This document shows positions 1 through 22,304 of a stretch of 64,000 nucleotides of DNA, piece after piece. Each line of letters opens with the position of its first letter. The first letter of the stretch is position 1. Source of the stretch: a bacterium F11 (GTDB lineage: Bacteria; Elusimicrobiota; Elusimicrobia; F11); contig MSYE01000215.1 in NCBI GenBank assembly GCA_002176905.1, forward strand, positions 1 through 64,000, in the 5' to 3' direction. Both the position numbers and the translations under genes were made by a program. Below the pieces are notes generated by a model. It did not search any database. It had not been told where the DNA came from and saw only the letters and a list, made by a program, of their open reading frames with translations.

Positions 1-2282
1 AAGAACACAATCATGACAACAATCCCAATGAATTTCATGGAATAACATCCCAGGGGGATGGGTCCCAAAGCCCTTATCTTCGAAAGTTGAGGCAGGTATA
101 TTTTTATTATCAATCTCAATGGATTGGTGAAGGCGGGATACGGGCAGACGCTGGAGGGAGTCGGGATATTGTTGACTCTCCCGCAGATGGTATTATCAAT
201 TCTGCTGAGTTGAATTTAATTGGTGTTTCTTGGCAATTAACGGAAGGGAATCCCAATTACAAAAGCGAAGTGGATTTTCGTGAAGATCAAACAATCAACG
301 CCCTCGATTTGAATGAGCTAGCTCAACGTTGGCTTGCCAAAAAAGGAGATGAACGATACAGAGTAGAATATGATGTTGCCGGAGGAGAGGGAACGGAGGA
401 AGTTACCCTTAACGGAAGTGCCAGCATTTCATCCGGCGGTCCTATTATTGCCTACCGTTGGTATAGGGTAAATGACCAAGGAGAAAGAGAATTTATAGAG
501 GATAATGTCGAAATTATTCAAAACCTTTCTCTTGGTGAACACACATTCGCCCTGGAAATCGAAAACGAGCAACATCAAACCGATGATGATGTTATTGTAA
601 TTAACATTGAGGATCCTGCTCCGGGAGAAGACAATTTTCTTATCGAAGGTCTCGTTACAGCCAGTCAAAGGTGGGGAGATGCTTCCATTCAGAAAAGGGG
701 GGAAGTCCTTAGCTTAACCTATCAGAGTGAAGGGAAACCCGATCGAACGATTATCTATGAATTGGATTTGCGGCAAAAAACGCTTCAGCGAACCCGAGTG
801 GGGGTGGATACCATCACAGAAATGGCCACAACGAACTTGGCGAATTACTTGGATCTTCTTGATGAAATGTATCAGGATTCCTGGAATGCGAGAGTCAGCG
901 ACCCATTGGACAATCCCAATTTTGAGTGGGAATTGGAATTGAAAAATCGATTTATTGCATTACTGGAAAACGAAGAACAACAAAGTCAACCAATAGAGGA
1001 TGCTTTGTTGGAGGCTGAATTGGGCGATATCCGGGTTTTTCGTACAGAGCGTACTGATAATGGACAAGGAGGAATTGTCTACCATTCTGTTAGGGTTATG
1101 AGAAACCAAGACATCCTCATCGATGTTCCCCTATCTTATGTTAATAAGGATATCGTCATCCGAGGAGATGGTTTGGTTTTGGTTCAGTATTTTGATGCGG
1201 ACCGTGGTACCCAATTATGGGCTTATGACACAAATTCCAATTCACCGTTTGATGCTTCTTTCAATGATCTGTTGGTGGATTGGTTTGCGAATCTGATAGA
1301 TCGGGATATACCTAGATTTTTTGATGAAACGCATTGGGTCGCCGAACGAAACCGCGAAACCATTTTGGTTCTTAAAAGTCCTCACCAAGGTGCGTCGGTT
1401 GATATTGAATTTGATTATTCAAACGAAATTATCTATGTGCCTGGATTGGATCCCATTTACCTCGAAAACAATCCAACTGAAGCCATAGCACATTTGGAAG
1501 CCATAATGCTGATATTAAGAAGAATGGAGCAAGAAGAATCGTCGGAAAAGCCTCGGATATATTCCTCTTTCTTAAGATCGCTGGGTGCAACCATAGAATC
1601 TTATTTGTTCCCTGCTGTGGCAGCTCCACTGGATCAAGGATTGAGGGTTGTCGCTGAAGATGACAAGGTTATCTCCATGCGCTATCTTGAGGGAGACCGC
1701 TACTTGGCTTTGACTGATTTAAGGGCCACGGTATATGACGATAATAATATCGCTGCAGCTTCTGTTCCGAACTTATGGTCACTAAAAGGATGCGATGTTA
1801 CTGGGTGTGAAGAACATGTTTCTCTTTTCTACGCTCAAGAACGAAGAGCCGGCGTCAATATAGATCGTCCAGGCGTGTACACGTTTCGCGTTGTCGCGGG
1901 TGAAGAATCCGAAGGCGTGCATGACGATGTTCAGGTCACGGTGGATTCCTTTGGTATTTTAAATCAATCAGAATTGGGAAGCCAAAACATACAGGAAAGG
2001 GAAGGAAGCCATGACCTTTCTCTAATTTCATTAAATAAGAAATTTAATCCTGAAAGGGGAGAAAAAGGAGATATCGATTTCAATCTCTCGACCGAAGCCA
2101 ATGTGAAAATTCACATTCTTAATCAGGATTACCACATTGTGGATAGATGGGGGAATGCACAGTATGGCGCCGGTCATCACATTCTCCAATGGGATGGAAG
2201 TGGCCTTCCTTCTGGATCCTATCATGTTTGGATCTATATCGATGGTAAGTTATCGAAATCAAAAATAATTATCTCAAAATAA
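1..2282 (+). CDS. 3' part of a secreted glycosidase-like protein with dockerin, PKD-like and FlgD-like tail domains
   Basis: The reading frame is open from base 3, so the start lies outside the window; 759 residues are visible. The first ~45 residues (EHN..NEFHGI.SQGDG..SPYLRKLR..Y.YYQS.W) match the end of each catalytic domain of the tandem glycosidase at 7744-12351, so the missing part is probably a clan GH-A barrel. Then follow a dockerin-like segment (about 49-112; DGIINSAELN, INALDLNELAQRW), a PKD-like beta-sandwich (about 120-206) and some 290 residues that I do not recognise. Next come a beta-sandwich with a WSLKGC...GCEE motif (about 548-650) and a C-terminal FlgD-Ig-like tail (LQWDG, SGSYHVW, ending KSKIIISK). 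It is probably secreted and held at or released from the cell surface by the tail. The glycosidase assignment rests only on homology of the truncated end; the domain order is seen directly. Confidence 0.8.
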   Translation, partial: EHNHDNNPNEFHGITSQGDGSQSPYLRKLRQVYFYYQSQWIGEGGIRADAGGSRDIVDSPADGIINSAELNLIGVSWQLTEGNPNYKSEVDFREDQTINALDLNELAQRWLAKKGDERYRVEYDVAGGEGTEEVTLNGSASISSGGPIIAYRWYRVNDQGEREFIEDNVEIIQNLSLGEHTFALEIENEQHQTDDDVIVINIEDPAPGEDNFLIEGLVTASQRWGDASIQKRGEVLSLTYQSEGKPDRTIIYELDLRQKTLQRTRVGVDTITEMATTNLANYLDLLDEMYQDSWNARVSDPLDNPNFEWELELKNRFIALLENEEQQSQPIEDALLEAELGDIRVFRTERTDNGQGGIVYHSVRVMRNQDILIDVPLSYVNKDIVIRGDGLVLVQYFDADRGTQLWAYDTNSNSPFDASFNDLLVDWFANLIDRDIPRFFDETHWVAERNRETILVLKSPHQGASVDIEFDYSNEIIYVPGLDPIYLENNPTEAIAHLEAIMLILRRMEQEESSEKPRIYSSFLRSLGATIESYLFPAVAAPLDQGLRVVAEDDKVISMRYLEGDRYLALTDLRATVYDDNNIAAASVPNLWSLKGCDVTGCEEHVSLFYAQERRAGVNIDRPGVYTFRVVAGEESEGVHDDVQVTVDSFGILNQSELGSQNIQEREGSHDLSLISLNKKFNPERGEKGDIDFNLSTEANVKIHILNQDYHIVDRWGNAQYGAGHHILQWDGSGLPSGSYHVWIYIDGKLSKSKIIISK

Positions 2283-2360
2283 CGGGCCTCACCAAGGGAT
2301 CCCCGTAACCATATTTGATAAGCTGTTTTTCTATTGCGCGGAGAAGAGGTTTTATTAGAT

Positions 2361-2870: not shown

Positions 2871-2881
2871 TCCCTCATTGT

Positions 2882-5800
2882 TTATTTGATGACAGAAATC
2901 TTTTCAATATTTCCTTCCACATCTTGAAAGAAATAAGTCCCAGAAGCGACAACGAATCCATCTCGCGTTGTGCCATCCCATATTGCGGTTCCGTATTCCG
3001 ATGAGCTTGCTTGACATTTCAGCGTAACCACTTCAAATCCATTAAGGTCGCGAATAATCAAATTATCCTTGCAGGGAATTGAAATCTTGTCGTCTTCAAG
3101 AGGATAAAGATAATTGATAAATCTTATTTTCTTGTCCACCGGGCCTGGATTCGGGTTGATAAAGGGGGGCTCTGAGGAGTGAGATCCGTTTTCAACCAGG
3201 CTGTTTAAGTAGACCTCAAGATTCGTATAGCCTTCGGAATTTAGGGTTTTGTTGTTTCGATCGGTATCATCGTTTGGGTTAAGGCCGTGTGACAACTCCC
3301 AGCTATCCGGCATACCATCCAGATCGGAATCAGCTACGGGTGTTCCGGGTTCCAGTGGAACCAAGGGATCAGCAATACCAAGGATCGAAATAAGGTCATC
3401 CTGAGAGTTAATGACTTGCCCTGATCGCGTTATCAATTGAGCGATAATTCTTGTGTCGTGATAATCTCTGTGTTTGGAAGCACCCACACTGTTCAATATC
3501 CAATTGTAGGCCTCAGGTGCGGTCATAAGATAAGGAGAGTTATTAAGAGTAAAGGGAAAGGGGATAGAAACCAAATCACCAGGCTCAAATGCTCGAAAGG
3601 CTTCGTCTCCAATCAGAGTTCCGTCATGCCGGAGGTCCCCGTCAATATCCATGTAATTTGTACGGCCATGGAAAAGGATCGAGCCATGGCCATTATGTCC
3701 GAAGAAGGCTACATTTCGGATGCCATCCACTTTGGAAGGCCCAACAACAAGATAGTTCCCAATATAATTGGCATTTAGGAAACCTCGAGAAGGATTGGTC
3801 CCAACGTGACTCGAATTGTGAGACCAGTCATAAATAACATTGTTTACCACCTCTGCATCCATTCCATAGAAATCGCTACTGGATTCTGATCCAACGCTAA
3901 AATGGGGATTGCGAGCACGATTGTGGGCGATGAGAGATCGATAAAGTGTAACCCCGTTAATTCGAGCCGAACGTTCTTCCAATGATAAATTGTTGCGCAA
4001 AATAAGCCCAAATCCGTGGGGCCCTTTTTCGTGATAAGAGTAATCGAGCCCTTCTGCGATCAGACAATTTTGAATGGTGTAATTTTTTGCTCGATAGGCA
4101 TCCAGCGTTTCATCCATTCCCCAAGATGTAGAGAGATGGTCGAGAATAATAAGTTCTGATCCTAAACCAAAAGCTATCGTGTCACCAGAACTGCCTAATA
4201 AATCCATTTTTCCCTTGCCAACTTTTGATCCGAGTGTTTTCGCGTTATAATCCCCCAAACGGAATCGAAGATAGCGAACAATAAAATCCCGTCCTGAAAA
4301 AATCGTGGGATATCCGACAATCGTTATCCCTTGTCCCGGTGCTGTTTGTCCAGCCAGGGTTAGATTTGAGGTTTGAATTTTGAGCATTCTTTCCAACTTG
4401 ATATATCCCGCGACATTGAAAACAATGGTTCTTGGTCCATTGATCGTATCAACTCCACAACGAAGGCTCCCAGGTATGGGGCAATCCATTCCATCTGGAG
4501 TGGGGACATCATCATCATAATCCAAAAGATTGGTTACGACATAGACATCTCCGCCTCGTCCTCCAGTTGCTTTTGCGCCATATCCAACAGCACCAGGAAA
4601 TGCGGGCAGAAACGATTCTGGTTGGGGAGGCCCAAACTGAACAATACTGTGTTCAACCGCCCCAATGCTGCAGTTTTGGGACGGACGGGTAGCTCCGTAA
4701 AAGTCATAAGTTAAATCTTCGTGACAGGACGACTGAAGTTGATCAAAAGGATCTGTTGGCATCAGATTGAAATCCTTGTTATCCGGATTGACAAAGTTTA
4801 ATGTTACGGTTCTATTGCCGTTGGCATAGGGGCGCGCATTCAATTCATCCAGGGTGAGTTGTTCAAACTTGTTGGCATCGTTATTAAAACCGGCCACAAA
4901 CGGATTTCCATCCGTCTGGACCAAGACATTGTTATCCCACTGATTCCCATATGCATTATTTTGATCCGGCATGAATAAATCAACCGTTATTGGTTTGTTG
5001 TGGCTTTCTTCATAGGGGGTGTCATACCAATTTATTCCGTAAATAATGTTGTTAAAGATATAGTTATTGGCGAGTCGATTGGTTGCTGGTTGTCCTCCCG
5101 TAAAATGGCCAAGGAAAATTCCGATGGATCCGCCGCGATATATTGTGTTATTAAAAATCATGTTTCCATTAGCGGTGTCATCGGGATGATTGACAATATT
5201 AACCCCAATGCTAATGGCATGTGCGTCATAGGCACTGCTTGTATGGAATGTGTTATTGTAAATCTTGGTGTTATTGGAACTTTGAACTTGGAGTCCGTTG
5301 CCGGATAAGCTTCCGGAGGTGGGGGTGGTATTCCAATCGTGAAACCAATTGTTGCGGATGATGCTATCGTTGCATTTCCAATATCCGATGCCGGTGTGGA
5401 ATTCATTGGTAATTTCGTTGTTTTGAACAATCAGCCGTTCGGATTCTCGTAAAGAAAAACCTTGATGCCCACAACGTTGGGTTTTGTTATCTTCGATCAG
5501 AATATCTTCGGATATATTGACCAAAAGGCCTTCTCCTTTATATTGATCACGAACCAATCCAATCCCATCTGGGTTGCACCTGAAGAGATTGTTACGAATA
5601 ACAGTATTCCGAATAGATTCGAGATAAAAAGTTCGTCCCCAACCCTCTTCTCCTTCTTTTTCCTCGGGATAACGGTTCCCATGGCCAATATCATCCCAAT
5701 CGTGGGTATCCCGAAAAATACAGTTTTCGATCAGATGACCTTCCCCACTCCTCAAAGCAACAAGTTTGCGGGCATTTAAGGGTTTATTTGATTTTTGAAC

Positions 5801-6283
5801 AGTACCCACAAATTCAAGAGAATCCAAAATAAAATGACTCCCGTGTATTTCAAAGAAAAATTTCTGTGTGTAATTTCCATTCCGAATAATAACCTCTTCT
5901 TCCTCATAGGGACGAATGGTAATGGGATTGTTTGCATCGCCTGAAGACTTGATTATTATGGGTGGATGGATTGGATTTTCTTCATAATCTCCGCCACGAA
6001 TGTAAACGGTATCACCGGCTTTTACTCGAATTGATTGTAAATTCGATTCATCCAACGCAGAGAAGGAACACCAAGGAGAGGTGGGATCCAATGCCCATTC
6101 ACGCCCCTCAATTGATCCCAAAGGAGGGTCCTGGCAATTGCAGTTGTCCTTATCAATAAAAAGGACATTTTGCCCATTTGCCTTATTTTTAGGGTCGGAA
6201 TTTTCCCGACATTCTCCCTGAATTTGCAGGGGAATAAGCGCAAATAAACCAAGAAAAAATATGAATTTAGTCAGTGTTTTCAT
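2882..6283 (-). CDS. Secreted beta-helix / pectate-lyase-like protein with FlgD-like tail
   Basis: The protein has 1133 residues with a signal peptide (MKTLTKFIFFLGLFALIPL...). Residues ~35-490 form a right-handed parallel beta-helix of the DUF1565/NosD type, with many N-N-x-F/I and 'IRNN' turns. Residues ~555-905 begin AFPGAVGYGAKATGGRGG and continue with VYVVTNL, FNVAGYI, DHLSTSWGMDE, the pattern of bacterial PL1-like pectate lyases. A thrombospondin type 3-like calcium loop follows (DSDLDGMPDSWELSHGLNP, ~980). The last ~75 residues form the FlgD-like tail (AIWDG, VASGTYFF, ending KISVIK). It probably acts outside the cell on an acidic polysaccharide; the substrate is unknown. ATG at 6283 has AGGA eight bases upstream; a TTG at 6301 is possible but less likely. 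A sigma-54 type promoter lies at 6445-6459. Two potentially separate carbohydrate-binding helices in one chain are unusual. Confidence 0.85.
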   Translation of the reverse strand: MKTLTKFIFFLGLFALIPLQIQGECRENSDPKNKANGQNVLFIDKDNCNCQDPPLGSIEGREWALDPTSPWCSFSALDESNLQSIRVKAGDTVYIRGGDYEENPIHPPIIIKSSGDANNPITIRPYEEEEVIIRNGNYTQKFFFEIHGSHFILDSLEFVGTVQKSNKPLNARKLVALRSGEGHLIENCIFRDTHDWDDIGHGNRYPEEKEGEEGWGRTFYLESIRNTVIRNNLFRCNPDGIGLVRDQYKGEGLLVNISEDILIEDNKTQRCGHQGFSLRESERLIVQNNEITNEFHTGIGYWKCNDSIIRNNWFHDWNTTPTSGSLSGNGLQVQSSNNTKIYNNTFHTSSAYDAHAISIGVNIVNHPDDTANGNMIFNNTIYRGGSIGIFLGHFTGGQPATNRLANNYIFNNIIYGINWYDTPYEESHNKPITVDLFMPDQNNAYGNQWDNNVLVQTDGNPFVAGFNNDANKFEQLTLDELNARPYANGNRTVTLNFVNPDNKDFNLMPTDPFDQLQSSCHEDLTYDFYGATRPSQNCSIGAVEHSIVQFGPPQPESFLPAFPGAVGYGAKATGGRGGDVYVVTNLLDYDDDVPTPDGMDCPIPGSLRCGVDTINGPRTIVFNVAGYIKLERMLKIQTSNLTLAGQTAPGQGITIVGYPTIFSGRDFIVRYLRFRLGDYNAKTLGSKVGKGKMDLLGSSGDTIAFGLGSELIILDHLSTSWGMDETLDAYRAKNYTIQNCLIAEGLDYSYHEKGPHGFGLILRNNLSLEERSARINGVTLYRSLIAHNRARNPHFSVGSESSSDFYGMDAEVVNNVIYDWSHNSSHVGTNPSRGFLNANYIGNYLVVGPSKVDGIRNVAFFGHNGHGSILFHGRTNYMDIDGDLRHDGTLIGDEAFRAFEPGDLVSIPFPFTLNNSPYLMTAPEAYNWILNSVGASKHRDYHDTRIIAQLITRSGQVINSQDDLISILGIADPLVPLEPGTPVADSDLDGMPDSWELSHGLNPNDDTDRNNKTLNSEGYTNLEVYLNSLVENGSHSSEPPFINPNPGPVDKKIRFINYLYPLEDDKISIPCKDNLIIRDLNGFEVVTLKCQASSSEYGTAIWDGTTRDGFVVASGTYFFQDVEGNIEKISVIK

Positions 6284-6694
6284 GTGATGGTTCCTGAACA
6301 ATGAAAATCCCGTAAATAATTAATTGTCAACGCTATTGATTAATATAGCGGTTGATCCATCGTATTGTTTAGTTAGGGAACAATAATAAGGATAGGTTCA
6401 AATCAACTCTAATTATAGATGAATTAGGTCACACCTATTTTATAGCAACGTTAATGCCAGCAAGGGATAAGCCATAATCTATTAGCCTACCCATGGAGAG
6501 GAAAAGAGGCAATTACGGTACTCCTTATTATTAGCCCCCATTATGACTCATTACATTACATTCCTTCTAGAAATGCAAAATTCGGCCTTTTAATACACCT
6601 TTTAATGTCATTTTTACAACTTTTTTACCACTTCTTAAGGACTTCTTAATCCCCGCTCGATATCCTAAACTTATACGCAATCCCTCTTAAATTT
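6284..6694. other. AT-rich divergent intergenic region
   Basis: This 411-base gap separates the divergent beta-helix gene (left) and PorV-like gene (right). I see no convincing coding potential. It contains a sigma-54 type promoter facing left (6445-6459), a short inverted repeat TAGGT-cac-ACCTA at 6425-6437 just downstream of that promoter, and a GCTAT...ATAGC inverted repeat near 6341-6358. I found no clear sigma-70 promoter facing right. Confidence 0.6.
6445..6459 (-). promoter_or_regulatory. Sigma-54 (RpoN) type -24/-12 promoter for the beta-helix/lyase gene
   Basis: Reading the minus strand, the bases are TGGCATTAACGTTGC followed by TA. This matches the RpoN consensus TGGCAC-N5-TTGC with the invariant GG and GC at the correct 10-base separation. 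It lies about 160 bases before the ATG at 6283, leaving a long leader. Sigma-54 promoters need an enhancer-binding activator; none is encoded nearby. The match is seen directly; activity is inferred. Confidence 0.65.
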
Positions 6695-7738
6695 ATGCTT
6701 AATAAAATCAATACGTATCTAATAATTCTTCTATTGATACCAGGTTCTCTTCAAGCAAAAAGCCAGACGGAGGGAGCTTTGAGTCTTCTTGAGGCATCGG
6801 GAGCACGTCCCGCAGCGCTTGGAGAGGCCTTTTCTGCTGTTCCCAATGACGTCTCTGCTTTTGCTTATAATCCTGCCTCTCTTGCCTCTCTTCAAGAAAA
6901 TCATGTTTCTTTTCTGTTTCAACGGGGAATTTCCGATGATTCCTTCGGTCAATTTGCATTTGGAATTCCCCTTAACCAAGAAAGCGGATTGGGTTTTTCC
7001 ATTGGATATTATGATGGGGGGGACATCAGTTTTATCGAAGGAGGATCCCCAGTTACTTTAACGGCTCAGCGCGATTTGGTTTTGGCTCTTGGAGTGGCCA
7101 GTCAAATACAAATGGTATCGCTTGGCATTTCAGGTAAAATTCTCTCCTCTGAGTTGGCCGAGACAGATCACGCCAATGCCTATGCTGTTGATATGGGATT
7201 GGGTTTGACCCTTAATTCCCGTTTGCGGTTGGGCGCAGCAGTTCAGAATATCGGAAACAAACTAAAATTTAATGATGTTGGGGATGATCTCCCGCGCATT
7301 GTAAGAACCGGACTTTCCTATGACATCATCACATCAAACATCCCCACAACAATCTTTGCTGATCTCCCTTATCATCTGAACCAACACGAATATCGACCCG
7401 GAGTGGGACTTGAAACTTACGTTGGTCCTTTGGCATTTCGGGGTGGATACAAACAAGAGAGCAGTCTTGAGGAATTTTCAGCGGGAGTGGGATTTTATTT
7501 AAACCAAGCATCCTTTCATTATGCTTTTGGGTTGATCAACCAGCTGGACTCTCGGCATCAAGTCAGCTTGGATTTTCGGTTTGGATCAAGAGTGCGAACT
7601 CCAGATTTTGTTAAGAAGGACACCCCTGTAAGGGTGGTCGAAGAATTGGATCCGCTGGATCCATCAAAGAAACAAAAAAGTAAAAAAACTGATTTGGGTG
7701 AAAAACCAGCTATAACGGTTCCCGAATTAAAGGAATAA
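6695..7738 (+). CDS. PorV/PorQ-family (UPF0164) outer-membrane beta-barrel protein
   Basis: The protein has 347 residues with a signal peptide (about 1-21). The mature start carries the family signature A...LL..SGARPAALGEAFSAVPNDVSAFAYNPASLA, followed by alternating beta strands of a FadL-like barrel (GISGKILSSELAETDHANAYAVDMG; LRLGAAVQNIGNKLKF). In type IX secretion PorV is the barrel that receives cargo through its C-terminal domain and hands it to the attachment complex. Only five bases separate it from the glycosidase gene, whose product carries such a tail, so it may be a dedicated carrier. The C-terminus has an extra charged lysine-rich extension (about 300-347) probably facing the periplasm. 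No clear Shine-Dalgarno sequence precedes the ATG. A second paralogue is at 19749-20741. The family call is firm; the transport role is inferred. Confidence 0.85.
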   Translation: MLNKINTYLIILLLIPGSLQAKSQTEGALSLLEASGARPAALGEAFSAVPNDVSAFAYNPASLASLQENHVSFLFQRGISDDSFGQFAFGIPLNQESGLGFSIGYYDGGDISFIEGGSPVTLTAQRDLVLALGVASQIQMVSLGISGKILSSELAETDHANAYAVDMGLGLTLNSRLRLGAAVQNIGNKLKFNDVGDDLPRIVRTGLSYDIITSNIPTTIFADLPYHLNQHEYRPGVGLETYVGPLAFRGGYKQESSLEEFSAGVGFYLNQASFHYAFGLINQLDSRHQVSLDFRFGSRVRTPDFVKKDTPVRVVEELDPLDPSKKQKSKKTDLGEKPAITVPELKE

Positions 7739-7743
7739 TCATT

Positions 7744-10700
7744 ATGATTAAAAAAACTCTTATCATCAGCTTATCTACCCTCTTTATCCTAGCAGGATTC
7801 AAACTCTCCATTGCCCAACAGGGTGGAGCTTCTCATGTGGAGGTTGTTAAATCATCCCATGGTTGGTCTCTAACTGTGGATGGTCTACCCTACATTATTA
7901 AGGGAGTATCTTATTCCCCAGTTACGGTGGGACAGTCACCAGCCCAAGCCTCCCAAGAAGATTGGATGGAAGTTGATGTCAATAATAACGGTCGAAATGA
8001 TTTCGCTTATGATTCTTTTGTCGATACCGATGGTAACAATCGGCAAACCGTAGACGAACCAAGGATCGGTGATTTTCAGTTGTTGGAGAACATGGGTGTT
8101 AATACCATACGACTGTATCATCATGCATCGGATGATGATTCTGTTATCCCCGGATACAATGAAGAACCCAGTCAAGAAAAACAATACGAGCACCCCCCAA
8201 ACAAGGCGTTGTTACGGGAATTGTACGACAATCATGGTATCCGCGTGGCCATGGGAGATCTCTTGGGTGCCTATACGGTTGGGGCCGGAGTTACCCAACC
8301 CAACATTGTTTCCTATTCAAGTGAGACCCACAAAGAACGAATGGAAGCCAGTGTTCGACAAATGGTGATGGATTTTAAGGATGAACCTTATTTGCTGATG
8401 TACATTTTGGGAAATGAGAACAATTATGCATGGACCAACAACAATGCCTATCGAGAACCTCGGCCTTATGTGGAATTTGTCCATGAAATGGCCGAACTGA
8501 TTCACACTCTTGATGGAAAACATCCTGTTGCTGTTTGTGTGGGTGATTTGGGGCCGATTGATATGTTCGCCAAAGTGGCTCAGGAGAGAAAATCACAAGG
8601 TAAAGAAGACTATATTGATATTTATGGTTCCAACAACTATCGGAACAGAGGGGAAGGTTTTCAAGATCCCTTTGATGAAAGAGGATTCTTCCATGTTGTC
8701 AAAATGCGTTATGACAAACCCATTCTTTTAACAGAATTTGGAGACCTCGAACCTGTATTTGAGAATGGCGATCTGGATGAGGCAAATCAGGAGGAAATTC
8801 ATAAATCAGGATGGGAAGATATTGCGAGAAACATGGCCCATAGATCTGGTGAAGATAATGTCATTGGTGGTTTTGTCTTTGCATGGCTTGACAATTGGTG
8901 GCAAGGCGGTGATCCAGGAGGGCATGCCATTGGAGCTTTGAATGAATGGCATGGCATCGCTTCCCAAGGAAACGGTAGTTCAAGTCCCTATCTTCGAAAA
9001 CTTCGGCCTGTTTATGACTATTATGACCGGACCTGGAGCACCCCTCTACCTCCTCCCATAGCAAACGCAGGTGATGATCAGCGCGCTGTTGATAATCCAG
9101 GCGATGGGGACCTAAACGAGTGGGATCGCTTGGTCATAGAGAACGCACTCAACACCCAGCCACATGATAACGGTTGGGTAGCGTTAGCGGATCTCAATGG
9201 AGATCAGAGAATCGATCAAAAAGATTTGGATAAATGGGACCGCGCAAAGGAAGCATTTGATCCCTCCCCAAACTGGAACGAAGATGCCGATATTAATAAG
9301 GATGGAAGGGTTGACGCATTGGATGCCAATATTCTTCTTAGCGTGATCACCAATCCACCTGGGATCCCAGAAGCCGATATTGATGGTAATGGAACTGTCA
9401 ACGTGCAGGACTTTGTTGAATGGAAAAAGGCAAGGTTTACTCATGGTCCTGGTAAGCTGGATAAAGATGCCGATATCAATGAGATTGGATATCAGGAGAT
9501 AACCCTTGATGGAACCGGAAGCAGGGCGGCAGACGGTGACATCGTTTCCTATGTTTGGAGAGAAATGGGGACAATAATTGATCGAGGGGCTGTCATCACC
9601 GCTACATTTACCGTGGGTGTTCATCTTGTTACATTGGAAGTGGAAGATAGCAACGGGAATAAGAGCGAAGATTTGGTCATTGTTGCTATCGATAAATACG
9701 AACCTGTTCCACCAAAGGATAATACGCCTCAACCGGCCTTGGGTGATACGGGAGCCTCTGTGGTAACAGTGGATAAACAGGGAAACGATTGGGTTTTGTT
9801 GGTAGATGGAGAACCCTATGAAATAAGAGGGGTTTCATATTCTCCCGCACAAAAGGATCAATCACCCAACCTTTCCAATCTTCAGGATTGGATGGTGGTC
9901 GATATCAACAACAACGGTCGCAATGACTTTGGCTATGATTCGTTTGTGGATGCCAATAAAAACAACCTCCAAGATGCAGATGAATTATCTGTGGGTGATT
10001 TTCAATTGATGAAAGAGATGGGTGTTAATACCATTCGACAGTATCACCATGCCTCCAATCATCCTATTGTTCAACCGGGGTATCACACGGACCAAAATCA
10101 ACACACACAATTCAACCATTCTCCCAGAATGGATGTTATGGATGATCTATATGAAACATACGGGATTCGGATTGCTATCGGGGACTTCATCGGAGCCAAA
10201 ACCATCGGAAGTGGTGTGCCGTATCCCGATGATGGTGTGATTGATGCAGTGGTTGATTATGAAAATCCCTTACATAGGGATACCATGAGAGCAAGTGTTT
10301 TTCAGATGGTAATGGATTTTCGTGATAAGCCCTTCTTGCTTATGTACATTTTGGGAAATGAAAACAATTATGACAGCAGTTTCACAAATGCCCACGAAAA
10401 ACCACGTGCCTATGTTGAATTTGTCCACAGCCTTGCCGAAATGATAAATGACCTTGACCCCAATCATCCCGTGGCTGTTTGTGTGGGTGATTTGGGACCC
10501 ATCGACATGTTTAAAACGGTTGCTGATGAAAGAATCCAACAAGGAAAAGAAGATCATATCGATATTTACGGATCCAATAATTACCGAAATCGCGGAGGTG
10601 GATTTAGGGATCCGATTGATGATCTTGGATTTTTTAATGTTGTGAAGGAAAGATATGACAAACCAGTCTTGATGACCGAATTTGGAGATTTGGAACCCGA

Positions 10701-12351: not shown

Positions 12352-12356
12352 ATATC

Positions 12357-12379
12357 GTTATCTTGTAACAAGTGATAAC
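12357..12379. repeat. Near-perfect inverted repeat after the glycosidase gene
   Basis: GTTATC-TTGT and ACAAG-TGATAAC face each other around a single A, with a two-base bulge. There is no T tract, so it does not look like an intrinsic terminator. It lies 50 bases before the GTG start of the SBBP gene and could be an operator or an RNA-processing or decay barrier. Confidence 0.4.
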
Positions 12380-12428
12380 CATATAAAAAATATCCCCTCC
12401 ACATATCTATTCACACAGGAAATAATGG

Positions 12429-15400
12429 GTGTTGAATCAAGTCCATAAAGTTATAGGGGTTCTTTTTTGCCTATTCCTAACATCAACATTAGGAATAAGA
12501 ATTCAGGCAGAAGATGTATCTGCGGAAATCGACTTTGCCACTTTCTTCAATTTGGGGGAGAATTCGGTTCTGACCGCTATTCAGGCTGACAACGAAGGAA
12601 ATGTCTTGATCGTTGGATCCGCTTATTATGATCCCCTCCGTTATCCCACCGCACACAGGATTGGCCCACCTGAATCCGTTGATAATCAGGATATCGTCCT
12701 ATCAAAAATTAACAAAGACGGGACTGATATTCTTTGGATGACCTTTATAGGAGGAAGAAGGGCAGATTATCCAACCGGAATTAAGCTATTGAAGGATCTT
12801 GATGGTTCCATCCTTTTAACCGGTCAGACAACCTCTCCTGACTTTCCAACAACAAACAATGCTGTCATACCCAGGCCTCCGCCGGTTGAGATTGATGATG
12901 GTGTGGTGGTTCGTCTGAGTGAAAACGGTTCGCAACTTCTTTATTCAACTTATTTCGGAGGAAGTGATGCCGATCAGGTCCTGGATGCGACCATGGATGT
13001 TTCCGGGAATATCTTTGTTGTTGGAAAAACCCACTCCCATGATATGCCCAATCCCCAAAATAGCTTGAAGGGTATAAGTGACGGTTTTGTCAGTGTTATA
13101 GACCACACAGGGTCCAATGTTGTCTTTACAGAATATATCGGAACCGAAGAGGACGATCTTCTTGTGCATGGCGAAAAGATTGAGGAAATTGAAATTAATC
13201 CGTGGCGAAGAGCCTATTTTTTGGGAAGTGTTTTTTCTGATGGATTGGAGACAACCGAGGACGCGCTTTATAAGAATCACCAAGGAAATGAAGATTTGTT
13301 TATTGGGGAGATTTCAGCCTTTGGGCAAATCCATTATTTGAGCTATTACGGTGGATCAGAAGCTGACGCCACGCTTGGCCATTCAATGGAAGTGGATCCC
13401 TTCGGCAATATCTATGTTTCTGGTGTTACACTGTCTCAAGATTTTCCACTCTATAATGCCCATCAGACAGACTATATCAATGAAAAGAATAATGGTTTTT
13501 TGTTTAAGATAAATTCCTTAAATAATTTAAGCTTCTCAACCTACATTGGAGGAGAAGCGCTCGATTTCTGCACGGGCATCACTGTTGATTCTTTCGGGCG
13601 AATATTTGTGAGTGGCGTGTCTGTCTCTTCTGATTTTGAATTAACACCTGGAGCCATAAAAACAGAATTAAATGGAAATTCCCGCACATTCATTCAAACG
13701 TATTCACCAAGGGGAAACCTGTTGTATTCCTCTTTTTTTGGGGGCAGTCAATATTCGCACGGACTTGATATTGACCTTGGTTTGGAGGAACAACCCATCC
13801 TCTTTGGTGTTTCAAATGAAACCGACTTTCCTGTAACACCCGGCGTCATCAATAGCCCGCCTGGACCTTTTGGCCAATCTGAATATGTTGCGAAAATTAA
13901 TCTTTCCAATTTTCCATCTCCCCTCATCTCAAGTAAAGGGATTGATGTTGATCTGGTTTTTTCCAGTTATTTTGATGTCGGGGGCTTTGATCCTAGCATC
14001 ACCGCCGTAAAATCAGATGAGGATGGATCAATCTACATCGGAGGTCATGTTTACTGGGGGCAGGACTCTATTCCTGATAATGCACGGCATTTTGGACCCC
14101 TGGGATTCATGGACTTTTTTATTGCAAAAATGAGTTCGGATGGATCAACCCTTCATTGGTTAAATTTGATCGGAGGAAGTGGCACAGAATTTTCCCGAAA
14201 CAGCGAGATAATAATTGGTCAAGACAAATCAATTTCCTTTTTTGGGGATAGCAGCTCCGATGATTTTCCAATAACCGACCAAGCTTTATTTTCTTCTAAT
14301 AGAAAATCAGATGGTGTTCTCTTTCGATTCAATTCCAAAGGCTCGAAGCTTCTTTATTCCTCTTATTTTGGGGGAAGTCAAAATGACGGTATCCTTAATA
14401 TGGCCCAGGATACAGATGGAAATTGGCTGGTGTCAGGGTACACCCAATCGCCTGATCTGCCTCAAGCGCGCAACTCCTTTGGTGGGGGATTATCAGATGG
14501 TTTTGTTACAAAAATATCATCTGATGGAACCCAAGTTCTTTTTTCTAAATATTTTGGTGGAAGCGATACATCGGTAAATGCGGTTGAAGAATATATCTAT
14601 GACGTGGTGATAGATTCAAATAACAATATTTATCTTGCGGGGGGAATTTATTCGGAAGGAATGCCAACCACAATGAATGCGTTTTCAAGGCAACCCATTG
14701 GAGAAAATGATGCCTATTTTGCAAAGCTCTCTTCAACTGGAGATCTCCTTTATGGAACATACTTTGGAGGAACAAAAAGAGAGGATTTTAATTTTAACCT
14801 GGCCAGAGACAATTTTGGGAATATCTATTTGGTAGGTGCCACATATTCGGATGACTATCCAACAACAGAGAATGCTTCCCAACCCCAATTTGGAGGCGTA
14901 TCAGATGGTTTTATCTCGAAATGGGATCCCAATATGAATTTGGTTTATCTGACCTACGTTGGTGGATATCTGGATGATGAATTAAGCAATTTGGCTATTG
15001 ATTCGACTGGAAATATATTTGTTATAGGAGACATGGAATCCCCCGATATGAAGGTGACAACGGATGCCTTTCAAACGGATTTAAAAGGATATGGGGACAG
15101 CTATTTGCGAATTTATGGGCCCAATGGCCATCTCTTATATTCAACTTATTTTGGGGGAACCAATTCAGATTATGGGAATGCCATAGATCTCAACCATAGG
15201 AGAGAAGTGACCATGGTGGGTTTCACCAATTCGGAAGATTATCCGACCACACCCGGTTCTCACCAGCAAACAAATGAAACAGATAATTCAGGTTTTATAA
15301 CAAAGGTCTCTGCGTCCGGGGTGCCAGATGGAGGTCCTCAAGCTGATGCTGGACCGGATCAGGATGGCATCATTGATTCCTTGGGAGATGATGTGGTTGA

Positions 15401-17912
15401 TGTTTCCGATTTTAATATTTGGAATGAAAACAAATTCAAAACTGAGAATGATCCAGAGCGAAACGATGATGCTGATATGAATGGGGATGGGGAAATTAAC
15501 GAAGTGGACTTTCAAATCTGGTTTGATGCCAAATTCACAGAAAAAGGACAGGGGAATTATGATAAGCGAGCCGACATAAATGGTCGGGGGCTTGAAAAGG
15601 TTTGTCTCGATGGAACTGAGAGTGTGGGCAATAACATTTCTTATGAATGGTTTGAAGATGAGATTCTCTTAGCGGTTGGGCCGACTCCTTGTCTTTCGTT
15701 GGCGGTTGGAACTCACACCCTCACCCTGATTGTTACCGATAAATTCGGACTCAGCAATCAAGATGAAGTTCATATTACAATCAAACCCTTCGGAACAATC
15801 AGAAAAATTGAGTCCGCCATTGAAGTTGAACTTGTTATGTCAACGTACTGGTCTATACCAAATCATACGTTCCATTTTCTTGAGAAAAACATCGGAACCA
15901 ACAGTAATGGGGAAATCTATATTTATGGAATAATCCAAAACTATCAAAAAGGGCAAGATCAAACCTCTGAAATTGGGGAATTGGGTGGTGCCTCAGACCT
16001 TTACGTAGCGAAATTAGATGCTGAGGGGACAAGGGTTTTATGGACAACCGTATTGGGTGGAAGTTCTTCTGATCATGCTGGTAAAAATGCACTTATCATC
16101 ACGCCTGATGACCGAATAATAATAGGAGGAAGTACGCAGTCTAGCGATTTTCCGGTTACTCCTGATGCATTTCAAAGACACTTAAAAGGACAAACAGATG
16201 GATTTGTGGTTCGATTGAGTACATCTGGTGAATTTGTGGAAAAATCAACCTATTTTGGAGGGGATGGCGCGGAGCTTCTAAATGCTCTCACAATTGATAA
16301 CCAAATGAATATTTACCTTGGTGGAGCCTCTACCAGCAACAATCTTCCCGGTGCCGTCAATGATTATCAGGGGGATACTTTTAAAGGACACGGATTCTTG
16401 GCCAACATTCATCAAGATACGGGGGAGGTCTTTTACTCACGTTATATTGCGGGTCCCATTAATCATGATGTTCTATTCGGTGATGCGATCGAAAGTATTT
16501 TTATTGATTCCTCTCAAATTTTGCATTTTCTTGGTGTGGTTCATTCACAAGTGGAAGTGACACAAGATGCATACGATAATACCTACAATGGAGATGCCGA
16601 TATTTATTATGGGAAATTGGATAATAACGGGAACCTAATATATGGGACTTTCTTTGGTGGATCCCATCGGGATAATCCTGGAAATTCTTTTGATATTGAT
16701 GGGGAGGGAAATGTCTATATAGTGGGGGGTTCAAATTCTGAAGACTTTCCGTTGGCCAATCCGCATCCCACTACGAATTCACGTGAAAATGACGGCGTTT
16801 TTCTTCGATTGAATTCCCGTGGTATACCTACTGATTCTTTTGCCGTTTCAGGATCTCGATCCGATTGGCTTACAGATTTGAAAATCAACGACGTAGGGCA
16901 GATTATTGTATTGGGTGACACAACCTCATCTGATGTTGAAACAACAACACCCACAATGAGAGAAGTCGGAAACTCTGACGAGGCGTTACTGGATGCTTTC
17001 TTTCAAATTTATGACATCAACGGAGATCTATTGTATTCGAGTTATTTTGGTGGATCAACCTTGAATTATTTTCATGATTTCACCATTGATAATAATGGGG
17101 ATATTGTTGCTATCGGGGGGACAGATTCAACTGATTTTCCCGTAACCTCTGGTGTCTATAAAGAATCAAAAGGAACAGCCCATCATTTTGTATCCAAATT
17201 TTCAATGGGTCATGGGGAGTTAATGGCGGGTCCGACTGATTCCAATCCAACAGAAAAAAAGACGAAATTCTGGGTTGATGCTGGTGAGAACATAAACACC
17301 CTAATGAGGCAAGTCAATAGCCATCGGAGACTTGGTCTTGCTGTTCTGGAAGGAAGCGCTTGGGATGACGATCAATTGCTAGATGAAGTGGATCGTTTGA
17401 GCTGGTCCTTGGAGGGATGCAACAAAGATCCATGTGGAGAGATCTCTATTGGTCACCCGAATTTGTTTCGTACCGGAGTAAATATGGCTGAACCCGGAAT
17501 ATATACTTTTGTTTTTTCAGCGGAAAAAGACCAGCAGAACGCATCAGATTCGGTTACTGTTACAGTTGGATCTTCTTTCCCAGATACGGATCCTGGTATT
17601 GGGAAAAGTGAAGACCCCTCTCCGGCCTTTTCTCAAACAGACCTAAGAGTAAAATTTAGTCCAGAACAAAAGGAAAAAGGAGAAATTGAATTCTTCCTTG
17701 AAACCGAAGGCTGGGTAAGTGCCGTCATCGAAGATCGAAATCGGATTGTTGTGCGACATCTTCTCAATCGGAGGTTTTCAGCCGGTCATCACACTGTAGA
17801 GTGGGATGGTCTGTTTGATAATCAACGTGACATGGTGCCGTCGGGTTTTTACAATGTTGTTGTGGTAACCCCTGAAAAAACCTTTAAATCTAAACTTGTG
17901 GTGTCAAAGTAG
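12429..17912 (+). CDS. Giant secreted SBBP beta-propeller protein with dockerin, PKD-like and FlgD-like tail domains
   Basis: The protein has 1827 residues. The GTG start is supported by AGGA eight bases upstream and by an immediate signal peptide (VIGVLFCLFLTSTLG). About 17 SBBP repeats, typified by LLYSTYFGGS...GNIYVVG.T.S.DFP, fall in three blocks (about 20-490, 520-960 and 1130-1600), consistent with two or three beta-propellers. A dockerin-like segment (about 975-1055; DMNGDGEINEVDFQIW) and a PKD-like domain (about 1060-1125) separate the second and third blocks. A WSLEGC...CGE beta-sandwich (about 1615-1710) and a FlgD-like tail (VEWDG, PSGFYNVV, ending KLVVSK) close the chain. Such propellers usually bind ligands or proteins rather than catalyse. 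It lies 77 bases after the glycosidase gene and ends at a bidirectional terminator. The function is unknown; surface adhesion or scaffolding is my inference. Confidence 0.88.
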   Translation: MLNQVHKVIGVLFCLFLTSTLGIRIQAEDVSAEIDFATFFNLGENSVLTAIQADNEGNVLIVGSAYYDPLRYPTAHRIGPPESVDNQDIVLSKINKDGTDILWMTFIGGRRADYPTGIKLLKDLDGSILLTGQTTSPDFPTTNNAVIPRPPPVEIDDGVVVRLSENGSQLLYSTYFGGSDADQVLDATMDVSGNIFVVGKTHSHDMPNPQNSLKGISDGFVSVIDHTGSNVVFTEYIGTEEDDLLVHGEKIEEIEINPWRRAYFLGSVFSDGLETTEDALYKNHQGNEDLFIGEISAFGQIHYLSYYGGSEADATLGHSMEVDPFGNIYVSGVTLSQDFPLYNAHQTDYINEKNNGFLFKINSLNNLSFSTYIGGEALDFCTGITVDSFGRIFVSGVSVSSDFELTPGAIKTELNGNSRTFIQTYSPRGNLLYSSFFGGSQYSHGLDIDLGLEEQPILFGVSNETDFPVTPGVINSPPGPFGQSEYVAKINLSNFPSPLISSKGIDVDLVFSSYFDVGGFDPSITAVKSDEDGSIYIGGHVYWGQDSIPDNARHFGPLGFMDFFIAKMSSDGSTLHWLNLIGGSGTEFSRNSEIIIGQDKSISFFGDSSSDDFPITDQALFSSNRKSDGVLFRFNSKGSKLLYSSYFGGSQNDGILNMAQDTDGNWLVSGYTQSPDLPQARNSFGGGLSDGFVTKISSDGTQVLFSKYFGGSDTSVNAVEEYIYDVVIDSNNNIYLAGGIYSEGMPTTMNAFSRQPIGENDAYFAKLSSTGDLLYGTYFGGTKREDFNFNLARDNFGNIYLVGATYSDDYPTTENASQPQFGGVSDGFISKWDPNMNLVYLTYVGGYLDDELSNLAIDSTGNIFVIGDMESPDMKVTTDAFQTDLKGYGDSYLRIYGPNGHLLYSTYFGGTNSDYGNAIDLNHRREVTMVGFTNSEDYPTTPGSHQQTNETDNSGFITKVSASGVPDGGPQADAGPDQDGIIDSLGDDVVDVSDFNIWNENKFKTENDPERNDDADMNGDGEINEVDFQIWFDAKFTEKGQGNYDKRADINGRGLEKVCLDGTESVGNNISYEWFEDEILLAVGPTPCLSLAVGTHTLTLIVTDKFGLSNQDEVHITIKPFGTIRKIESAIEVELVMSTYWSIPNHTFHFLEKNIGTNSNGEIYIYGIIQNYQKGQDQTSEIGELGGASDLYVAKLDAEGTRVLWTTVLGGSSSDHAGKNALIITPDDRIIIGGSTQSSDFPVTPDAFQRHLKGQTDGFVVRLSTSGEFVEKSTYFGGDGAELLNALTIDNQMNIYLGGASTSNNLPGAVNDYQGDTFKGHGFLANIHQDTGEVFYSRYIAGPINHDVLFGDAIESIFIDSSQILHFLGVVHSQVEVTQDAYDNTYNGDADIYYGKLDNNGNLIYGTFFGGSHRDNPGNSFDIDGEGNVYIVGGSNSEDFPLANPHPTTNSRENDGVFLRLNSRGIPTDSFAVSGSRSDWLTDLKINDVGQIIVLGDTTSSDVETTTPTMREVGNSDEALLDAFFQIYDINGDLLYSSYFGGSTLNYFHDFTIDNNGDIVAIGGTDSTDFPVTSGVYKESKGTAHHFVSKFSMGHGELMAGPTDSNPTEKKTKFWVDAGENINTLMRQVNSHRRLGLAVLEGSAWDDDQLLDEVDRLSWSLEGCNKDPCGEISIGHPNLFRTGVNMAEPGIYTFVFSAEKDQQNASDSVTVTVGSSFPDTDPGIGKSEDPSPAFSQTDLRVKFSPEQKEKGEIEFFLETEGWVSAVIEDRNRIVVRHLLNRRFSAGHHTVEWDGLFDNQRDMVPSGFYNVVVVTPEKTFKSKLVVSK

Positions 17913-18475: not shown

Positions 18476-18494
18476 TTTATTTCCCCTGTAAATT

Positions 18495-18587: not shown

Positions 18588-18616
18588 AAAAACCACCTAA
18601 AATATTGATGGTTTTT
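18588..18616. repeat. AT-rich inverted repeat in the 18476-18751 gap
   Basis: Arms AAAAACCA and TGGTTTTT are separated by 13 bases. It lies between the dockerin gene leader and the SGNH esterase gene. It could be a weak terminator or an operator; nothing else was recognised in the rest of this gap. Confidence 0.35.
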
Positions 18617-18751
18617 AGGGCATCTCAATGGTTTGTGGAAAATTAATTGGGGATTAGAAGTGGTAAAAAGGACCCATGATTCGGGAATGTTCACCAATAT
18701 AAATTCCTGAGAAAGACTACCGCAATCATCATTTTGGTATTATTTCTCAAG

Positions 18752-19744: not shown

Positions 19745-19748
19745 GAAA

Positions 19749-20741
19749 CTATTCCTGACTAAGAGTTCGTTTCTTCAGTCTACTGGGGTCAAAGGTGTCT
19801 TTTCGTAAGAAGTAATAACTCAACGTAACGCGGTGGGTTTCATCCAGCTCATCAAAAAGGCTAATGGCGTAATCAATAGAAAAACCTGAGAGGTTCGCTC
19901 CAACACCAACATTGACAGTTTGGGGATCAGATATATACCCTATTCGAAAAGCTGCGGATCCGTTCATGTTTTCTGTTTCGATATTCCTCTTGATTTCCAG
20001 TCCAGAGTGAGACGCCAAATCTTCCTCTTTTTGCTTAACTCCATCAGAGGTAAGCAAAAACTCAATTGGAATCCAACGGAATGCCCGGAATTGGCCAAGA
20101 TCAAGAGAGTAAGAGGCTCCGAATCGATAAGTGAGTGGAAGGGGATCAGAATCTTGTTCAAATTTCACATCGGGTCCTATATTTTGAGCCGACCCGCCTA
20201 GGTTAAAGTTTTTTAGAGGCGTTTTCCAAAGCAATCCCGAATCTAGCGCATATCCTGATTCATTTACGGTTTCTGCCAGTTCCAAACGAAACAATTTCCC
20301 CGTAACACCTATGGAAAGTGGGATGTTTCGGCCCAATCCAAATCCGACCATACCGACAATATCTTGTTGGGCATTCCTTTGCTCTTGTAGACCACTCGAA
20401 AGATTTAGATCAATGGATCCCCCATCAAAGTAAAGGGCCCCTACGAAAAGGGTTCCGAAGGGAACAGGTTGACCATAAGTCAACGTTCCTAGACTGTCAT
20501 CGACCATCCCGTTTAAGTACGTTGCTGATACTTCGGCATATGGTAGGTGTGACAATCCAGCGGGATTATACCCCAATGATTGAATCTGACCAGGAATTGA
20601 AACAAAGGATTGCCCCAATCCTTCGGCTTTTGCTCCGCCGCCTCTCTGTAAGGTAAGGGCTCCAGTTTGGGCTGTGTCAGCATAAAGAAGGCCAGATCCC
20701 AAAAGAAGAACCGAGAATATGGCAGATGAATAAATTCTCAT
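19749..20741 (-). CDS. Second PorV/PorQ-family (UPF0164) outer-membrane protein
   Basis: The protein has 330 residues with a signal peptide ending near LLYADTA. It aligns along its length with the PorV-like protein at 6695-7738: TGALTLQRGGGAKAEGLGQS, QSLGYNPAGLSHL, GVTGKLFRLELAETVNESGYALDSG and GGSAQNIGPDVKF. The start codon overlaps the stop of the upstream gene (20738-22243) by four bases, so the two are translationally coupled. That upstream product has a FlgD-like C-terminal tail, which again pairs a tail-bearing cargo with a PorV homologue. Carrier function is inferred from the type IX secretion PorV. Confidence 0.85.
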   Translation of the reverse strand: MRIYSSAIFSVLLLGSGLLYADTAQTGALTLQRGGGAKAEGLGQSFVSIPGQIQSLGYNPAGLSHLPYAEVSATYLNGMVDDSLGTLTYGQPVPFGTLFVGALYFDGGSIDLNLSSGLQEQRNAQQDIVGMVGFGLGRNIPLSIGVTGKLFRLELAETVNESGYALDSGLLWKTPLKNFNLGGSAQNIGPDVKFEQDSDPLPLTYRFGASYSLDLGQFRAFRWIPIEFLLTSDGVKQKEEDLASHSGLEIKRNIETENMNGSAAFRIGYISDPQTVNVGVGANLSGFSIDYAISLFDELDETHRVTLSYYFLRKDTFDPSRLKKRTLSQE

Positions 20742-22243
20742 TTAATAACCACGACTTTTTTGGTTTTGTCTAGTTTGGGCCCTTCCATATAAAGGAGATA
20801 CGTTCCACTGGCCACGACTTCACCCTTATCATTGGTACCGTCCCATGTTTCAGCAAATGTTCCAGATGAACGAGTTTGGTTGGATATGGTTTTCACGAGG
20901 CGGCCATTAAAAGTGTAAATCCGAAGTATGGTTTGGCCTTCCTGAAATATTGTCACAGAAATACTCAAGCTTTCTCCCTTCAATGGGCGAAACAAATTAT
21001 CGGTTAAGACAATGGTGGCCGCTGAAAAGGAAATTTGTAGGGCACTCGAAAGGGTTGCGCTCCTTCCATTGCTATTGGTAACCACGATATCCCAGAAGCC
21101 CAAGGCTTTGTCGTTGGTGTCGAAAGTTGCCAGGATGGTTTGGTCGCTTGTTCGGTTGATGCTTGTTCCCGTAATGGAGGTTTCACCCGTTTTCGTTAAT
21201 GTGACCGTTGGGGTAGTGGCGAATATTTCTCCTGTAATGGTTATTGTTTGTGCTGGATCAGCCTGGTTCACCACGCTGGGGCTGATGGTTAAGGGATCCG
21301 GATCAAGGGTAACCCCACTATAAATATGTGATGAGGAGGTAGAAGAATGATTCGTAAAATTGAAATAGACCCTCCATTGATAGGTGTCAGTCGACCGGAA
21401 AAGAACTGGATATGAGAGTGAACCACTTGATGATGTGGTCGACAACCGGAAAGTCGTTTCGGAACTAAAAATGTCTCCATCTGTTGTAGTAGATAGGCCG
21501 CTTAAAATTTGAGAATTGGTGGTTTCGCCAGTAAGGGGAGCGGTGTAGAAGAGGCGAACGATGTCATTGGTAAGAATTGCTGCCCCAACATGTCCGGCCC
21601 TGGTTGAATTTAAACGCCATGGGGTTCCCCAATTTGCACCTTCATCTGTTGAGGTTGTTGTATAAATACGGTAATCAGCTTGGCTGTTGGATCCGACGGA
21701 ATCTTGAATGTAATACAAACGCCAATTGCCGTTGGGGAGCTCAATTAATTGAGGAGATCCCAAGAAGGTTTGTCCACCATTGTCTTCCACACGGATTCCG
21801 GATTCGTTGGCCCAATTGAGGCCATCTGATGAGGTGGCGCTGACAATTTTATAATTACTGGTCGTGCCCATGACGGAATACAACATGCGGTATCCACCCG
21901 CATCCAATTCGAGAATAGAGCATCCTGTAACAGAGCTCACGTTGATAGATGGAGATGTATCTGAAGAAATCCGTATTCCTGATTCTTCAACCCAAGTTAC
22001 CCCATCTGCACTGGTAGCAGAACGAATCTCATAATTTCGCCTAAAATACATGCGAACACTGGGATAAGTACCGATAATGACTTGGGGAGAGGCGGATGAA
22101 ATTCGAATGCTGGATTCTTTGGTGAAATCAGGAACCGCAAAAGCTTTTTGATCAAAGAAAAGGAGACCCATAACAATTAGGGCTCCCGAAAAAAAATTCA
22201 GAAGGGGGAAAGAATTCTGAACACGTTGATGTATACTTTCCAT
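20738..22243 (-). CDS. Secreted sialidase-fold-like repeat protein with TIG-like domain and FlgD-like tail
   Basis: The protein has about 501 residues with a signal peptide (LLNFFSGALIVMGLLFF...AFA). Residues ~25-310 contain repeats of the form S..G..W..ESGIRIS and MRMLYSV/WRLYY.., typical of sialidase/BNR or five-bladed glycosidase-like propellers; no catalytic residues could be assigned. A TIG/IPT-like sandwich follows (about 315-410; TITGEIFATTPTVTLT), then a FlgD-like tail (ETWDG, VASGTYLLYM, ending KKVVVIK). The start is uncertain: ATG at 22243 or GTG at 22261, neither with a good ribosome-binding site. It is the first gene of a two-gene operon with the downstream PorV homologue. It may bind or cleave sugars at the cell surface. 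Confidence 0.75.
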   Translation of the reverse strand: MESIHQRVQNSFPLLNFFSGALIVMGLLFFDQKAFAVPDFTKESSIRISSASPQVIIGTYPSVRMYFRRNYEIRSATSADGVTWVEESGIRISSDTSPSINVSSVTGCSILELDAGGYRMLYSVMGTTSNYKIVSATSSDGLNWANESGIRVEDNGGQTFLGSPQLIELPNGNWRLYYIQDSVGSNSQADYRIYTTTSTDEGANWGTPWRLNSTRAGHVGAAILTNDIVRLFYTAPLTGETTNSQILSGLSTTTDGDIFSSETTFRLSTTSSSGSLSYPVLFRSTDTYQWRVYFNFTNHSSTSSSHIYSGVTLDPDPLTISPSVVNQADPAQTITITGEIFATTPTVTLTKTGETSITGTSINRTSDQTILATFDTNDKALGFWDIVVTNSNGRSATLSSALQISFSAATIVLTDNLFRPLKGESLSISVTIFQEGQTILRIYTFNGRLVKTISNQTRSSGTFAETWDGTNDKGEVVASGTYLLYMEGPKLDKTKKVVVIK

Positions 22244-22304
22244 GTTGTCTATTTTTAACACACTCGCAGGAAAACAGGAAGCAAATTTTTATATTTGATT
22301 TAAA

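What the first reader, a model, noticed from the sequence alone, without database searches (positions are those of the whole stretch)
1..22261. Five secreted proteins with a common C-terminal tail next to two PorV homologues: a type IX-like secretion locus
The products of 1-2282, 2882-6283, 7744-12351, 12429-17912 and 20738-22243 all end in about 80 residues with WDG, a (P/A/L)SG.Y strand and a last hydrophobic strand closing with K. PorV-type barrels are encoded next to these cargo genes twice. In known type IX secretion the C-terminal domain is recognised by PorV. FlgD-like tails also occur in lineages where no type IX genes have been described, so this may be a divergent or simplified export/attachment route for carbohydrate-active proteins.
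Basis: partly seen in the sequence, partly recalled or inferred. Interest (0 to 1): 0.78.

Follow-up and report, generated by a model that had tools for sequence, protein, structure and literature searches.

The report
Type IX-like secretion in Elusimicrobiota
These genes make proteins tagged for export across the outer membrane together with matching carrier barrels, and relatives carry a version of the giant pore of the type IX secretion system usually described only for Bacteroidota, so this protein-export route seems to be more widespread than thought.

Summary
In detail: all five proteins end in one homologous tail of about 80 residues, and two PorV-family barrels directly abut tail genes (5-bp gap; 4-bp overlap). 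The window's own genome is not held; PorV and SecA place it in Elusimicrobiota (best SecA identity 74%).

In that phylum a ~1,800-residue homologue of SprA, the type IX translocon, is in 166 of 198 genomes, including two of the three nearest the window; the third shows none. A SprA profile matches solved SprA at E 2e-65, and the predicted structure of a 1,193-residue homologue retrieves SprA entries as the top four PDB hits. All 166 also have PorV-family matches; 154 have tail matches. The tail is modelled as a seven-strand sandwich whose best PDB match is the PorU C-terminal domain.

PorV genes are multiplied and sit beside tailed cargo more often than shuffled positions give. Some carry extra TPR, CarboxypepD_reg or OmpA domains (module types of the wall anchor PorE), or LysM. 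PorU-type peptidase is nearly absent (1 of 198). The GldM motor was not recognised, but that test lacks sensitivity.

Best reading: a divergent type IX system in which many cargoes have their own PorV carrier and probable anchor. New variant of a known kind.

The parts
3..2282 (+). Cargo 1 (5' end outside window): PKD-type region, dockerin-like stretch by alignment with cargo 3, then the tail
1983..2279 (+). C-terminal sorting tail (CTD) of cargo 1
   Evidence: leave-window-out HMM E 1.2e-5
2882..6301 (-). Cargo 2: beta-helix, partial match to pectate lyase PelZ (96.6 bits, cut-off 840), tail; divergent from PorV1
2885..3181 (-). CTD of cargo 2
   Evidence: E 6.8e-5
6695..7738 (+). PorV1, PorV/PorQ-family outer-membrane barrel, with a ~45-residue C-terminal extension without LysM
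7744..12351 (+). Cargo 3: GH2-like TIM barrel (a second copy seen by eye and in the alignment), dockerin-type and PKD modules, tail; 5 bp after PorV1
12052..12348 (+). CTD of cargo 3
   Evidence: E 7.6e-13
12429..17912 (+). Cargo 4: SBBP beta-propeller repeats, weak PKD and dockerin matches below cut-off, tail; 77 bp after cargo 3, probably the same transcript
17613..17909 (+). CTD of cargo 4
   Evidence: E 8.9e-6
19749..20741 (-). PorV2, second PorV/PorQ-family barrel (NCBIfam match; no Pfam match at E<=0.01)
20738..22261 (-). Cargo 5: BNR-like propeller (29.5 bits, cut-off 31.4), tail; stop overlaps the PorV2 start by 4 bp
20741..21037 (-). CTD of cargo 5; TIGR04183 25.5 bits (cut-off 23) when scanned alone, 19.9 in the whole protein; AF2 model pLDDT 93.7, seven strands

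Best explanation
The window carries two PorV-plus-cargo units and two further cargo genes without a same-strand PorV beside them, parts of a divergent type IX secretion system in an Elusimicrobiota bacterium. Proposed working: (1) cargo crosses the inner membrane by Sec (inferred from signal-like N-termini). (2) Its C-terminal Ig-like domain is the outer-membrane export signal (homology shown; function inferred). (3) A SprA-type translocon, encoded elsewhere in the genome and seen in close relatives but not in this window, passes the cargo through the outer membrane with a PorV-type barrel docked at its lateral gate (SprA homology shown; docking inferred from Flavobacterium). (4) Unlike the single shared PorV described for type A cargo of Bacteroidota, many cargoes have their own PorV paralogue encoded next door, which takes the cargo out and probably stays bound as its surface anchor (linkage shown; function inferred), as PorP/SprF-like barrels do for type B cargo. 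In some relatives that PorV carries wall-binding or scaffold domains itself.
Confidence: 0.74

Rival explanations
1. A complete, canonical type IX system with one shared PorV, GldKLMN motor and PorU sortase is present, but its other parts are too divergent for the models used; the many PorV-like barrels are later paralogues with mixed roles.
For: The GldM model also misses genomes that clearly have SprA (G011, G012, G013), so its silence is weak evidence. G001 has a C25 peptidase with a tail.
Against: The C25 model rings in the three SprA-positive non-Elusimicrobia genomes G011, G012 and G013, yet in only 1 of 198 Elusimicrobiota genomes. PorV-cargo gene pairing is strong. Among the 22 gene clusters listed around SprA in 19 loci I recognised no motor gene by eye.
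Confidence: 0.2
2. The tails are generic FlgD-type Ig domains used for folding or binding, and the PorV-like barrels are FadL-type transporters for the sugars or lipids released by the neighbouring enzymes; export uses another route.
For: Pfam calls the tails FlgD_ig; FlgD structures rank among the best PDB matches. 16 of 50 PorV rows also match Toluene_X/FadL.
Against: Strict C-terminal position, T9SS tail models, PorU CTD as best fold match, PorV as best PDB sequence hit of the barrel profile, and co-occurrence with SprA.
Confidence: 0.06

Closest known systems
Type IX secretion system of Bacteroidota (SprA/Sov, PorV, type A CTD)
   Same: SprA-type giant barrel, PorV-type carrier, C-terminal Ig-like seven-strand domain ending in a basic residue, enzymes among the cargo
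   Different: PorV strongly multiplied and often encoded beside individual cargoes; C25/PorU peptidase nearly absent (1 of 198); GldM not recognised; no T9SS gene cluster seen within about 6 kb of SprA in 19 loci; lies in Elusimicrobiota
Type B cargo with cognate PorP/SprF-like shuttle-anchors (PMC12618676 abstract; PMC9143113 passages)
   Same: One carrier barrel per cargo, gene linkage, carrier thought to stay as anchor
   Different: Here the barrel is PorV-like and the tail type A-like; only 2 of 36 tails match the type B model TIGR04131
PorE (TPR, propeller, carboxypeptidase-regulatory-like and OmpA-like domains; PMC9143113 passage)
   Same: TPR, CarboxypepD_reg and OmpA modules occur in Elusimicrobiota PorV proteins
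   Different: There a separate lipoprotein; here such modules, or LysM, are fused one kind at a time to the PorV barrel

Membership tests
Type IX secretion system | SprA/Sov translocon | tested here: met
   Not in the window; in 166 of 198 phylum genomes and in G003 and G179 among the three closest, not in G001; PDB profile match E 2.3e-65; Foldseek ranks 1-4; TIGR04189 below its curated cut-off
Type IX secretion system | PorV-type carrier barrel | tested here: met
   Two in the window over the NCBIfam PorV_fam cut-off, both below the stricter PorV and PorQ equivalog cut-offs; PorV2 without Pfam match; profile matches PDB PorV at E 2.5e-20
Type IX secretion system | Cargo with C-terminal export domain (TIGR04183/TIGR04131) | tested here: met
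   Tail of 20738-22261 passes TIGR04183 when scanned alone (25.5 against 23) but not in the whole protein (19.9); 27 of 36 tails match at E<=0.01; the other window tails are tied to it by HMM, not by a curated cut-off
Type IX secretion system | Sec signal peptide on cargo | tested here: inconclusive
   Seen by eye in four of four complete cargoes; no predictor run
Type IX secretion system | PMF-driven GldL/GldM (PorL/PorM) motor | tested here: inconclusive
   PF12081 0 of 198 over cut-off; it rings in the Bacteroidetes bin G211 but not in SprA-positive G011, G012, G013; TIGR03517 rang nowhere; GldL not tested
Type IX secretion system | PorU C25 sortase for type A cargo anchoring | tested here: not met
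   1 of 198 genomes; one of nine Elusimicrobia handles, G001. An attachment part rather than the translocation core
Type IX secretion system | PorK/PorN ring, PorW/SprE, PorE as separate proteins | not tested
FlgD hook-cap protein | Tail inside a flagellar FlgD protein | tested here: not met
   Tails sit at the C-terminus of large modular proteins; NCBIfam FlgD models score at most 34.7 bits against cut-offs of 230 and more

The most novel reading that the evidence does not exclude
Elusimicrobiota use an early-branching type IX system that works without the GldLM rotary motor and without PorU: a single SprA pore is served by a large set of cargo-specific PorV carriers, each remaining on its cargo as a non-covalent surface anchor and in some cases pinned to the cell wall by its own fused TPR, OmpA, CarboxypepD_reg or LysM domain. 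The Bacteroidota system, with one shared type A carrier, a motor and a sortase, would be the derived form.
Probability: 0.3. Interest if true: 0.87.

Novelty: new variant of a known kind. Interest (0 to 1): 0.73.

Why it matters
Papers seen here describe T9SS as confined to Bacteroidota, or to the Fibrobacteres-Bacteroidetes-Chlorobi superphylum (PMC4793230 passages; PMC7463736 abstract start in listing; PMC11205867 passages). A SprA-PorV-tail system across most of Elusimicrobiota would give that mostly uncultured phylum a named route for its secretome. It would let the cargo list be read directly from genomes, and it would allow the order in which translocon, carriers, motor and sortase were assembled to be tested.

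Tried and rejected
Flagellar FlgD: rejected, the tails end large modular proteins. Plain FadL transporters: kept as a minor rival. Absence of the motor as a firm claim: rejected, because PF12081 and TIGR03517 are also silent in the SprA-positive KSB1, Ignavibacteria and Roseithermus genomes; the two sub-cut-off PF12081 hits in Elusimicrobiota (L121, L122) are an OmpA/coiled-coil lipoprotein and a TPR protein by eye. SprA_N (PF14349) as the only test: too insensitive, 5 of 13 genomes at E<=0.001 and 4 over cut-off against 12 of 13 with an Elusimicrobia SprA query. First tail alignment A5 was spoiled by three untrimmed rows and replaced by A6. A LysM-like regular expression flagged no PorV ORF, although Pfam then found LysM in 4 of 50; the expression was too strict. 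Absence of a family from the VIA-align tables was not used as evidence. Paper search used whole-word matching, so its term 'elusimicrobi' could not match; only demanded both the phylum name and a T9SS term, while asked for some of several terms and listed only part of the papers found.

Full report
What is in the window. One search confirms five long ORFs with the reported ends, and searches give their modules: beta-helix with a partial pectate-lyase PelZ match (2882-6301), GH2-type TIM barrel with PKD and dockerin modules (7744-12351), SBBP propeller (12429-17912), BNR-like propeller just below cut-off (20738-22261), and a fragment (3-2282) that aligns with parts of 7744-12351. Their last ~80 residues align with 12 invariant columns. 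A tail HMM made without window rows, though its rows were first gathered with window tails as seed, finds exactly these five ORFs among window ORFs of 70 aa or more at E<=1 (E 7e-18 to 7e-5) and nothing in shuffled ORFs. The two barrels belong to the NCBIfam PorV/PorQ family (129.5 and 110 bits, cut-off 90) and are 32% identical; PorV2 has no Pfam match at E<=0.01. Gene spacing suggests two units: PorV1, cargo 7744-12351 and cargo 12429-17912 (gaps 5 and 77 bp), and cargo 20738-22261 with PorV2 (4-bp overlap). The cargoes at 3-2282 and 2882-6301 have no same-strand PorV beside them in the window.

Where it comes from. No whole genome is held for the window. A scan of species genomes with ten PorV1 relatives (A3) returned 25 loci, the best four in genomes named Elusimicrobia or Ca. 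Obscuribacterium magneticum. SecA of the window, searched only in the phylum of G003 (named Elusimicrobia bacterium in its record), matched 308 of 340 genomes at E<=1e-150; the nearest are G001 (Obscuribacterium), G179 and G003, each 74% identical, then G135 at 66%.

Co-occurrence. Over the same 198 genomes: PorV_fam in 177 at E<=0.001 (115 over cut-off; 1 of 14 controls rings, none over cut-off), SprA in 166, both 166, SprA alone 0, PorV alone 11, neither 21. The Fisher P values of about 1e-20 are not corrected for kinship or completeness; genomes with neither are small (0.2-1.4 Mb). The completeness column was empty for all these genomes.

Linkage. In 20 regions centred on PorV (L061-L080), 18 of 21 tails have a same-strand PorV within 500 bp (shuffled mean 7.3, maximum 15). 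In 40 regions chosen for neither (SprA flanks and distant stretches, L081-L120), 9 of 13 (mean 1.5, maximum 7); in 12 Elusimicrobia loci, 10 of 13 (mean 3.0, maximum 8); in 13 loci of other phyla, 13 of 25 (mean 3.8, maximum 10); 2,000 shuffles each. An earlier count with shorter ORFs gave 14 tails in the 40 regions. In 793 kb of G179, 6 tails, all C-terminal, 4 of them within 135 bp of a PorV; the C5 and C6 pieces were taken because they held known hits, but on contig C2 (595 kb), taken whole for its length and its SprA and SecA genes, it is 2 of 2.

PorV fusions. 56 PorV-family ORFs were found; 50 were scanned (fragments, repeats and one run-on ORF were dropped, and one gene is still in twice, as L080:4826 and L155:8032). 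TPR_2 in 4, LysM in 4, CsgG in 3, CarboxypepD_reg in 2, OmpA in 1 (examples). 16 of the 60 listed PorV1 homologues (the window's own included in the 60) also carry LysM. PorE is described with TPR, propeller, carboxypeptidase-regulatory-like and OmpA-like domains (PMC9143113 passage). I infer that such PorV proteins join carrier and wall anchor in one chain. PorV1 and PorV2 of the window have no such domain by Pfam.

What was not found. C25 (PorU-type) in 1 of 198 genomes and in 4 of 13 handles, including G001. GldM_1st over cut-off in 0 of 198 and in 1 of 20 handles, the Bacteroidetes bin G211; because SprA-positive non-Bacteroidota genomes are equally silent, this does not show that a motor is absent. 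SprA neighbours in 19 loci: LptF/LptG-like in 16, ComF in 13, pgk and gap in 9 (names by eye), a cluster of tailed proteins in 8 (its L089 member is an M6-type protease), a PorV cluster in 6 and a cluster with only weak PorV similarity in 4; no motor recognised by eye.

Mechanism. From the Flavobacterium structures PorV covers the lateral gate of SprA and its loops bind the CTD in the pore (PMC10994853 passages). The same parts are here, so I place the same core steps at high probability (about 0.85). That each PorV serves and holds its neighbour's cargo rests on linkage, number, near-absent sortase, fusions and the type B/PorP precedent (PMC12618676 abstract; PMC9143113 passages); about 0.6. 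Independence from GldLM is open; about 0.4.

Literature. The listings, abstracts and passages seen (one search returned no paper) describe T9SS, where they speak of its range, as Bacteroidota-specific or FCB-specific, and none that I saw names SprA in Elusimicrobiota. Subscription papers and preprints are not held and two Elusimicrobiota papers I looked up were missing, so prior reports cannot be excluded.

Noticed in passing
window 17972-18475 (-): Small secreted-looking protein ending in a dockerin-like module (GC-type dockerin 27.4 bits, cut-off 29), without the tail, between cargo 4 and a GDSL-like gene.
   Followed up: no
window 46880-50344 (+): 1,154-residue protein that by eye combines NHL-type propeller, transglutaminase-like and TPR parts; not scanned.
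   Followed up: no
window 41595-43415 (+): By eye an ExbB/TolQ-like and a TonB-like gene; a possible energy source across the envelope, but with no link shown to export.
   Followed up: no
L081-L100: SprA in Elusimicrobiota usually lies beside LptF/LptG-like (16 of 19 loci) and ComF (13 of 19) genes, and in several genomes near a PorV plus a tailed protein.
   Followed up: partly
L066, L068, L072, L077, L085, L088, L101, L109, L161, L002: PorV barrels with extra C-terminal CarboxypepD_reg, TPR, OmpA, LysM or CsgG/LpoB-like domains, several next to tailed cargo.
   Followed up: yes
L048:94-2718 (genome G001): C25 peptidase with a type IX-like tail in Obscuribacterium, the one of the three close relatives where no SprA was found.
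   Followed up: partly
G179 contig C5 73439-99277: Open frame of 8,613 residues ending in the tail, a giant putative cargo whose nearest PorV is 26 kb away.
   Followed up: no
L032 (genome G010, Hydrogenedentota) 6452-12754: A 2,100-residue SprA homologue (TIGR04189 143 bits, cut-off 200) outside Bacteroidota and Elusimicrobiota.
   Followed up: partly
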